DNA of 64,000 nucleotides from Acidihalobacter prosperus (lineage in GTDB: Bacteria > Pseudomonadota > Gammaproteobacteria > DSM-5130 > Acidihalobacteraceae), in contig NZ_JQSG02000001.1 of the NCBI RefSeq assembly GCF_000754095.2, positions 124,001-188,000 on the forward strand. Direction: 5' to 3'. Position numbers and translations under genes: made by a program. The notes beneath the pieces were generated by a model. It was given only the letters and a program-made list of their open reading frames with translations, made no database searches and was not told where the DNA came from. Each line of letters begins with the position of its first letter. The stretch's first letter is position 1. Positions 43,579 to 45,540 of this stretch are shown here, in pieces.

Positions 43579-45540
<1,962 letters not shown>

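What the first reader, a model, noticed from the sequence alone, without database searches (positions are those of the whole stretch)
44809..44811. Single in-frame TGA in an otherwise complete acetoacetyl-CoA synthetase
The frame continues for 409 codons after the TGA with all catalytic motifs intact and no frameshift. A TGG to TGA change would explain it. The thiolase and 3-hydroxybutyrate dehydrogenase next to it are intact, so only the acetoacetate activation step would be lost. The clean remainder means a very recent event, an assembly error, or stop readthrough.
Basis: seen in the sequence. Interest (0 to 1): 0.5.

Follow-up and report, generated by a model that had tools for sequence, protein, structure and literature searches.

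The report
Recent stop codon in acetoacetyl-CoA synthetase
One gene for using acetoacetate in an acid-loving, mineral-oxidising bacterium carries a single premature stop codon while the rest of the gene still looks undamaged, which is most likely an ordinary, very young gene breakage (or a sequencing slip) and not a new way of reading genes.

Summary
Confirmed: the minus-strand frame 45567-43582 encodes a 662-codon acetoacetyl-CoA synthetase (AACS) interrupted once, by TGA at codon 253 (44809-44811). Both halves match AACS models. The same-genus (G001) and same-family (G004) orthologues have TGG there; 0 of 94 aligned homologues has a stop at that codon. The sequence beyond the stop is undamaged: 0 of 120 near-invariant columns changed, dN/dS 0.093, no excess of amino-acid changes on this lineage. 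So the stop, if real, is very young. Recoding found no support: tRNA-Trp is identical in four genomes, none of 43 tRNA genes read has a UCA anticodon, no tRNA-Sec passed its cut-off, prfB is present, and TGA also ends the gene. AACS, thiolase and 3-hydroxybutyrate dehydrogenase form an accessory block that a third genome of the genus lacks. No CoA-transferase or PhaC family match exists in the genome. Best reading: a recent nonsense mutation in a dispensable gene (0.6), then sequence error (0.27), then useful UGA readthrough (0.1). Ordinary; low interest.

The parts
44809..44811 (-). in-frame premature TGA, codon 253 of the AACS frame; context GCC TGA CCG
44812..45567 (-). N-terminal part of AACS (252 codons from ATG 45567; likelier start ATG 45540 with GAGGGA upstream)
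   Evidence: (ACAS_N and first part of AMP-binding)
43582..44808 (-). C-terminal part of AACS, 409 sense codons, rest of AMP-binding and AMP-binding_C
43579..43581 (-). natural terminator of AACS, also TGA
45730..46899 (+). acetyl-CoA acetyltransferase (thiolase), intact, divergent from AACS
46913..47695 (-). 3-hydroxybutyrate dehydrogenase, intact
42602..43495 (+). htpX-like gene, left flank of the accessory block (name recalled from sequence, not from a family search)
47743..49821 (-). GGDEF/EAL-type protein (name recalled from sequence, not from a family search), right flank of the accessory block

Best explanation
A very recent TGG-to-TGA nonsense mutation in the acetoacetyl-CoA synthetase gene of an Acidihalobacter-type chemolithoautotroph. 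Translation would end at codon 253, before the nucleotide-binding SSGTTG motif (residues 281-286) and the C-terminal domain, so no active enzyme is expected apart from whatever basal UGA misreading by ordinary tRNA-Trp supplies. The gene belongs to a ketone-body block (AACS, thiolase, 3-hydroxybutyrate dehydrogenase) that not every genome of the genus has, so its loss is probably tolerated. Shown: the stop in the assembly, the intact remainder, the TGG in relatives, absence of the block in G002, absence of CoA-transferase and PhaC family matches. Inferred: that the base is real, that the enzyme is lost, and that the loss is near neutral.
For: Single TGA, no other damage. TGG in same-genus and same-family orthologues. 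No relaxation yet: dN/dS against G001 0.093 after and 0.124 before the stop, versus 0.050-0.108 for four neighbouring genes. Lineage-specific amino-acid changes 18-24 here against 26-33 in G001 with four outgroups, and 0.32-0.39 against 0.30-0.40 when divided by synonymous ones. Block missing in G002, where htpX and the EAL gene are about 90 bp apart, so it is dispensable in the genus. No PF01144 and no PhaC_N. tRNA-Trp unchanged, no UCA anticodon among 43 tRNA genes read, tRNA-Sec none over cut-off, prfB over cut-off.
Against: An undamaged remainder is just as expected from a base-call error, and no reads or second assembly could be examined. The first published draft of the probable strain was Ion Torrent at 8.5-fold (PMC4208320). 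The assembly shows an irregular junction at tuf. Low dN/dS is also what a functional gene with readthrough would show. That the enzyme is dispensable in this strain is inferred only.
Confidence: 0.6

Rival explanations
1. The TGA is a consensus error of a draft assembly; the strain carries an intact AACS gene.
For: Remainder indistinguishable from a working gene. The assembly has an atypical tuf junction and a separate 16.6-kb contig C8 bearing tRNA-Trp. PMC11017572 (abstract and outline) names assembler, platform and coverage as likely causes of spurious pseudogenes.
Against: It is a clean transition, whereas Ion Torrent errors are mainly indels (recalled). Against G001, 5 of 134 sense-like matches showed a frame-shifted continuation, in each case the first 44-123 residues at 55-71% identity (not checked further), so the sample is not riddled with indels. 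Of 171 coding-like matches in about 228 kb, 6 had an inner stop: 4 lie within longer open frames, 1 is followed by a 589-codon ORF and is probably upstream of its start (not tested), 1 is AACS.
Confidence: 0.27
2. Functional UGA readthrough: tRNA-Trp misreads the UGA often enough to make useful AACS, the stop acting as a dimmer of expression.
For: The misread residue would be Trp, the commonest residue of the site. The tetranucleotide is UGAC, also present in the CTTTGAC found in the prfB locus of G000 and its four relatives, a poor terminator (recalled). Purifying selection is still visible. PMC7918605 (abstract and passages) argues that such genes are common in bacteria.
Against: The stop is not conserved: 0 of 94 homologues. 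tRNA-Trp is identical in G000, G001, G002 and G004 and, read by eye, has a 5-bp anticodon stem and G24, so neither the 4-bp stem of PMC13092985 (abstract and outline) nor the classical A24 suppressor (recalled) applies. No UCA anticodon among 43 tRNA genes read in G000 (not the full set). UGA readthrough varies widely, about 12% in E. coli but 0.08% and 0.04% in two pseudomonads (PMC9481147, passages); unknown here.
Confidence: 0.1
3. Selenocysteine insertion or UGA reassignment.
For: None beyond the TGA itself.
Against: tRNA-Sec over cut-off in 0 of 5 genomes (best G000 hit 46.4 bits against cut-off 47, which ARAGORN calls tRNA-Ser(CGA)). prfB over cut-off in 5 of 5. The same gene ends in TGA. 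Residues of the 94 homologues at this site include no Cys. selA and selB were not searched.
Confidence: 0.01
4. Split two-piece enzyme: the 3' half is translated on its own by reinitiation.
For: Both halves remain conserved.
Against: The first ATG/GTG/TTG of the 3' frame is GTG 44709, about 100 bp downstream, giving 376 aa that begin just after the SSGTTG motif. The split falls inside the AMP-binding domain.
Confidence: 0.02

Closest known systems
Acetoacetate--CoA ligase, TIGR01217 / NF002937; structure 4WD1
   Same: Full-length match of the read-through protein, 926 bits over cut-off 521 and 974 over 639; 4wd1_A E 6.5e-184
   Different: Interrupted by one TGA at codon 253
Young bacterial nonsense pseudogenes / in-frame stops under purifying selection (PMC7918605, abstract and passages)
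   Same: Single internal stop, low dN/dS on both sides
   Different: Only this genome shows the stop at this codon; conservation of the stop across species, which would argue for function, is absent
Spurious pseudogenes from assembly error (PMC11017572, abstract and outline)
   Same: Internal stop in an otherwise undamaged gene, draft genome with a low-coverage first version
   Different: Reads not available here, so untested
AACS-like relic in G031 (L022)
   Same: AACS-like, interrupted
   Different: 7 stops in the main piece (4 TGA, 1 TAG, 2 TAA) at 47% identity: probably what an old relic looks like, unlike the window gene

Membership tests
Acetoacetate--CoA ligase (TIGR01217) | score above curated cut-off over the full length | tested here: met
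   925.9 bits, cut-off 520.9, residues 12-655 of 662, read through the TGA
Acetoacetate--CoA ligase (TIGR01217) | conserved residues of the family intact | tested here: met
   0 departures in 120 columns that are at least 97% identical among homologues
Acetoacetate--CoA ligase (TIGR01217) | continuous reading frame under the standard bacterial code | tested here: not met
   TGA at codon 253; hence a broken or read-through member, not an ordinary one
Acetoacetate--CoA ligase (TIGR01217) | enzymatic activity | not testable with these tools
   needs assay
Young nonsense pseudogene | stop absent from orthologues | tested here: met
   0 of 94
Young nonsense pseudogene | stop present in the organism's DNA | not testable with these tools
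   no reads, no second assembly
Young nonsense pseudogene | relaxed selection after the stop | tested here: not met
   explained if the stop is too young for changes to collect
Functional UGA readthrough gene | stop conserved across related species | tested here: not met
Functional UGA readthrough gene | altered tRNA-Trp or UCA-anticodon tRNA | tested here: not met
   tRNA-Trp identical in 4 genomes; no UCA anticodon in 43 tRNA genes read in G000 (the usual Ile and Ala(UGC) genes were not among them, so the set is incomplete)
Functional UGA readthrough gene | weakened RF2 | tested here: inconclusive
   prfB over cut-off, profile positions 14-353; effects of single residue changes not assessed
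Selenoprotein | tRNA-Sec | tested here: not met
   0 of 5 genomes over cut-off

The most novel reading that the evidence does not exclude
The UGA is a recently acquired, useful dimmer: ordinary tRNA-Trp misreads the leaky UGAC at a modest rate, restoring the ancestral Trp and giving low-level AACS that is enough for an autotroph that meets acetoacetate only rarely.
Probability: 0.06. Interest if true: 0.4.

Novelty: new member of a known kind. Interest (0 to 1): 0.12.

Why it matters
Little, beyond correct annotation: it warns against assigning acetoacetate or 3-hydroxybutyrate use to this strain from the gene list, and it shows that the ketone-body block is accessory in this genus. If readthrough were shown it would be a clean natural test of low-level UGA decoding in an extreme acidophile.

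Tried and rejected
Selenocysteine: no support. Changed tRNA-Trp: tRNA-Trp was at first missing at its usual place beside tuf in G000, which briefly suggested a lost or altered tRNA; it lies on contig C8 and is identical to that of G001, G002 and G004. Suppressor tRNA elsewhere: 43 tRNA genes of G000 read, none with anticodon UCA (window none). One search counted 43 by covariance model, but the genes usually in the rRNA operon (Ile, Ala-UGC) were not among those read and the published count for the probable strain is 48, so a few were not seen. Other in-frame stops as a sign of a suppressor background: of 171 coding-like matches of G001 ORFs in about 228 kb of G000, 6 had inner stops; 4 sit within longer open frames, 1 is probably upstream of its start, 1 is AACS. 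The reverse comparison gave 15 of 175, which I did not resolve one by one. An earlier looser version gave 29 of 188 and 41 of 182, many of them near HSP ends or in short frames, and was not used. Frameshift screen: 5 of 134 one way, 19 of 126 the other; not resolved one by one. The parC row was read in a wrong frame and dropped. Other strains of the species: none seen, whose collections hold one genome per species, and may leave out the window's own genome. Paper searches: Acidihalobacter/DSM 5130/genome size (20 of 25 listed), UGA readthrough terms (15 of 17 listed), AACS pseudogene terms (15 of 3,590 listed, none of the 15 containing 'acetoacetyl-CoA synthetase'); no listed title concerns this stop, which is weak evidence of absence.

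Full report
Observation. The minus-strand frame 45567-43582 encodes a full acetoacetyl-CoA synthetase interrupted once, by TGA at 44809-44811. The read-through protein scores 925.9 bits on TIGR01217 (cut-off 520.9) and 974.5 on NF002937 (cut-off 639); the part before the stop scores 272 and 284, the part after it 640 and 674. Pfam places the break inside the AMP-binding domain. Of five AMP-binding (PF00501) places in the genome this is the only one with a stop inside. The gene's natural terminator is also TGA.

Which organism. The tools name no genome, but contig C1 of same-genus genome G002 is 3,363,634 bp, exactly the length published for the chromosome of Acidihalobacter prosperus (later A. 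aeolianus) DSM 14174 (PMC5255921, whole text). G001 (3,566,941 bp) and G004 (3,448,835 bp) fit strain F5 (3.57 Mbp) and A. ferrooxidans DSM 14175 (3.45 Mbp), and the window's genome (3,359,675 bp, 8 contigs) fits A. prosperus DSM 5130 (3.36 Mbp, G+C 64.5%) in the table of PMC6396713 (passages); G+C is 65.5% in the window and 63.2% in the 228-kb sample. Rusticyanin-like matches in 5 of 5 genomes, all below the family's cut-off, fit iron oxidisers. This identity is an inference. How the later version of about 3.36 Mb was made I did not find (PMC9062700 and PMC7760498, passages).

What the codon was. In 94 homologues aligned over codon 253, TGG is used in 50, other sense codons in 43 (Leu 21, Tyr 12, Phe 7, Val, Met, Lys one each), one has a gap and none a stop; two of the 96 loci given had no row. 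G001 (86% identical) and G004 (74%) have GCC TGG at this place. So a single G-to-A transition explains the TGA, at a site that tolerates several hydrophobic or aromatic residues.

Age of the stop. Against G001, dN/dS (Nei-Gojobori) is 0.124 before and 0.093 after the stop; htpX 0.050, thiolase 0.106, 3-hydroxybutyrate dehydrogenase 0.108, EAL protein 0.088; dS is 0.75-1.22 (the parC row was in a wrong frame and is dropped). Polarised with four outgroups, the G000 lineage shows 18-24 amino-acid changes against 26-33 on the G001 lineage; after the stop 9-12 against 14-18; before it 6-15 against 9-19, where one outgroup (L036) gives more on the G000 side, 15 against 9. Amino-acid over synonymous counts are 0.32-0.39 for G000 and 0.30-0.40 for G001. 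In 120 near-invariant columns G000 departs in 0 and G001 in 1; the range over the 94 homologues is 0 to 12, median 0. Rough inference: about 340 nonsynonymous changes would be expected after the stop had the gene been neutral for the whole G000 branch (907.6 sites times half of dS 0.752), so even 10 excess changes would mean about 3% of the branch; no excess is seen. The stop is very young, or not real, or tolerated by readthrough. By contrast, the AACS-like relic of G031 carries 7 stops in its main piece.

Recoding machinery. tRNA-Trp of G000, on contig C8, is letter for letter that of G001, G002 and G004, anticodon CCA, with a 5-bp anticodon stem and G24 as read by eye. So neither the 4-bp-stem UGA reader of PMC13092985 (abstract and outline) nor the classical A24 suppressor (recalled) is present in this gene. 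None of 43 tRNA genes read in G000 has anticodon UCA; a few tRNA genes were not among them. tRNA-Sec is over cut-off in 0 of 5 genomes; the best G000 candidate is tRNA-Ser(CGA). prfB is over cut-off in 5 of 5, and CTTTGAC, the programmed frameshift heptamer (recalled), occurs in the prfB locus of 5 of 5. The AACS stop shares UGAC with that site, a leaky context (recalled). Basal UGA misreading differs greatly between bacteria, 12% in E. coli against 0.08% and 0.04% in two pseudomonads in one assay (PMC9481147, passages), and is unknown here.

Setting and consequence. AACS, a divergent thiolase and 3-hydroxybutyrate dehydrogenase lie between an htpX-like and an EAL-type gene. G001 has the same block at the same place. 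In G002 the two flanking genes are about 90 bp apart and it has no close AACS (best 30% identical), no close dehydrogenase (best 41% over part) and no thiolase match. In G004 the flanking genes are also adjacent, 118 bp apart, with AACS and dehydrogenase at two other places. The block is thus accessory. No CoA-transferase (PF01144, 0 of 4 genomes; found in 6 of 14 control genomes) and no PhaC_N (PF07167, 0 of 4; found in 1 of 14) were found. So if AACS is dead, no alternative for acetoacetate activation was found, and by family search the strain has no PHB synthase of this kind. For a chemolithoautotroph such a loss is easily tolerated (inference).

Error or mutation. The assembly joins tuf to an rpsJ-like gene where the three relatives have tuf followed by tRNA-Trp, and carries the tRNA-Trp gene on a 16.6-kb contig, so it may be imperfect at repeats. 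In about 228 kb compared with G001, AACS is the only well-supported inner stop in G000, and 5 of 134 sense-like matches have a frame-shifted continuation, each in the first 44-123 residues, so the sample does not look generally poor. The reverse screens, G000 frames in G001, gave more (15 of 175; 19 of 126) and were not resolved. PMC11017572 (abstract and outline) and PMC7918605 (abstract and passages) describe error and readthrough respectively as common sources of such cases. Sequence alone cannot decide.

Verdict. I put a real, very recent nonsense mutation first (0.6), a base-call error second (0.27), useful readthrough third (0.1). It is ordinary.

Noticed in passing
L114:5811-5813 (Marinospirillum minutulum DSM 6287): An independent internal stop (TAA) in another species' AACS, inside the conserved SSGTTG motif, with the frame open on both sides in the alignment.
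   Followed up: partly
L134 (G000:C2:308800-311600) and L157 (G000:C8:14800-15800): tRNA-Tyr-Gly-Thr-tuf is followed by an rpsJ-like gene instead of tRNA-Trp as in three relatives; tRNA-Trp sits on a separate 16.6-kb contig. Collapsed tuf repeat in the assembly or a real rearrangement.
   Followed up: partly
43496-47742: The ketone-body block sits between an htpX-like and an EAL-type gene in G000 and G001; the flanking genes are about 90 bp apart in G002 and 118 bp in G004: gain or loss of an accessory block.
   Followed up: partly
L022 (G031:C31:7493-8559): AACS-like sequence with stops of all three kinds at 47% identity, probably an old relic.
   Followed up: no
G001 near joined-sample positions 75640 and 83896 (about G001:C1:1231639 and 1239895): Two long G000 ORFs match G001 in two frames joined at one point: possible frameshifts in G001.
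   Followed up: no
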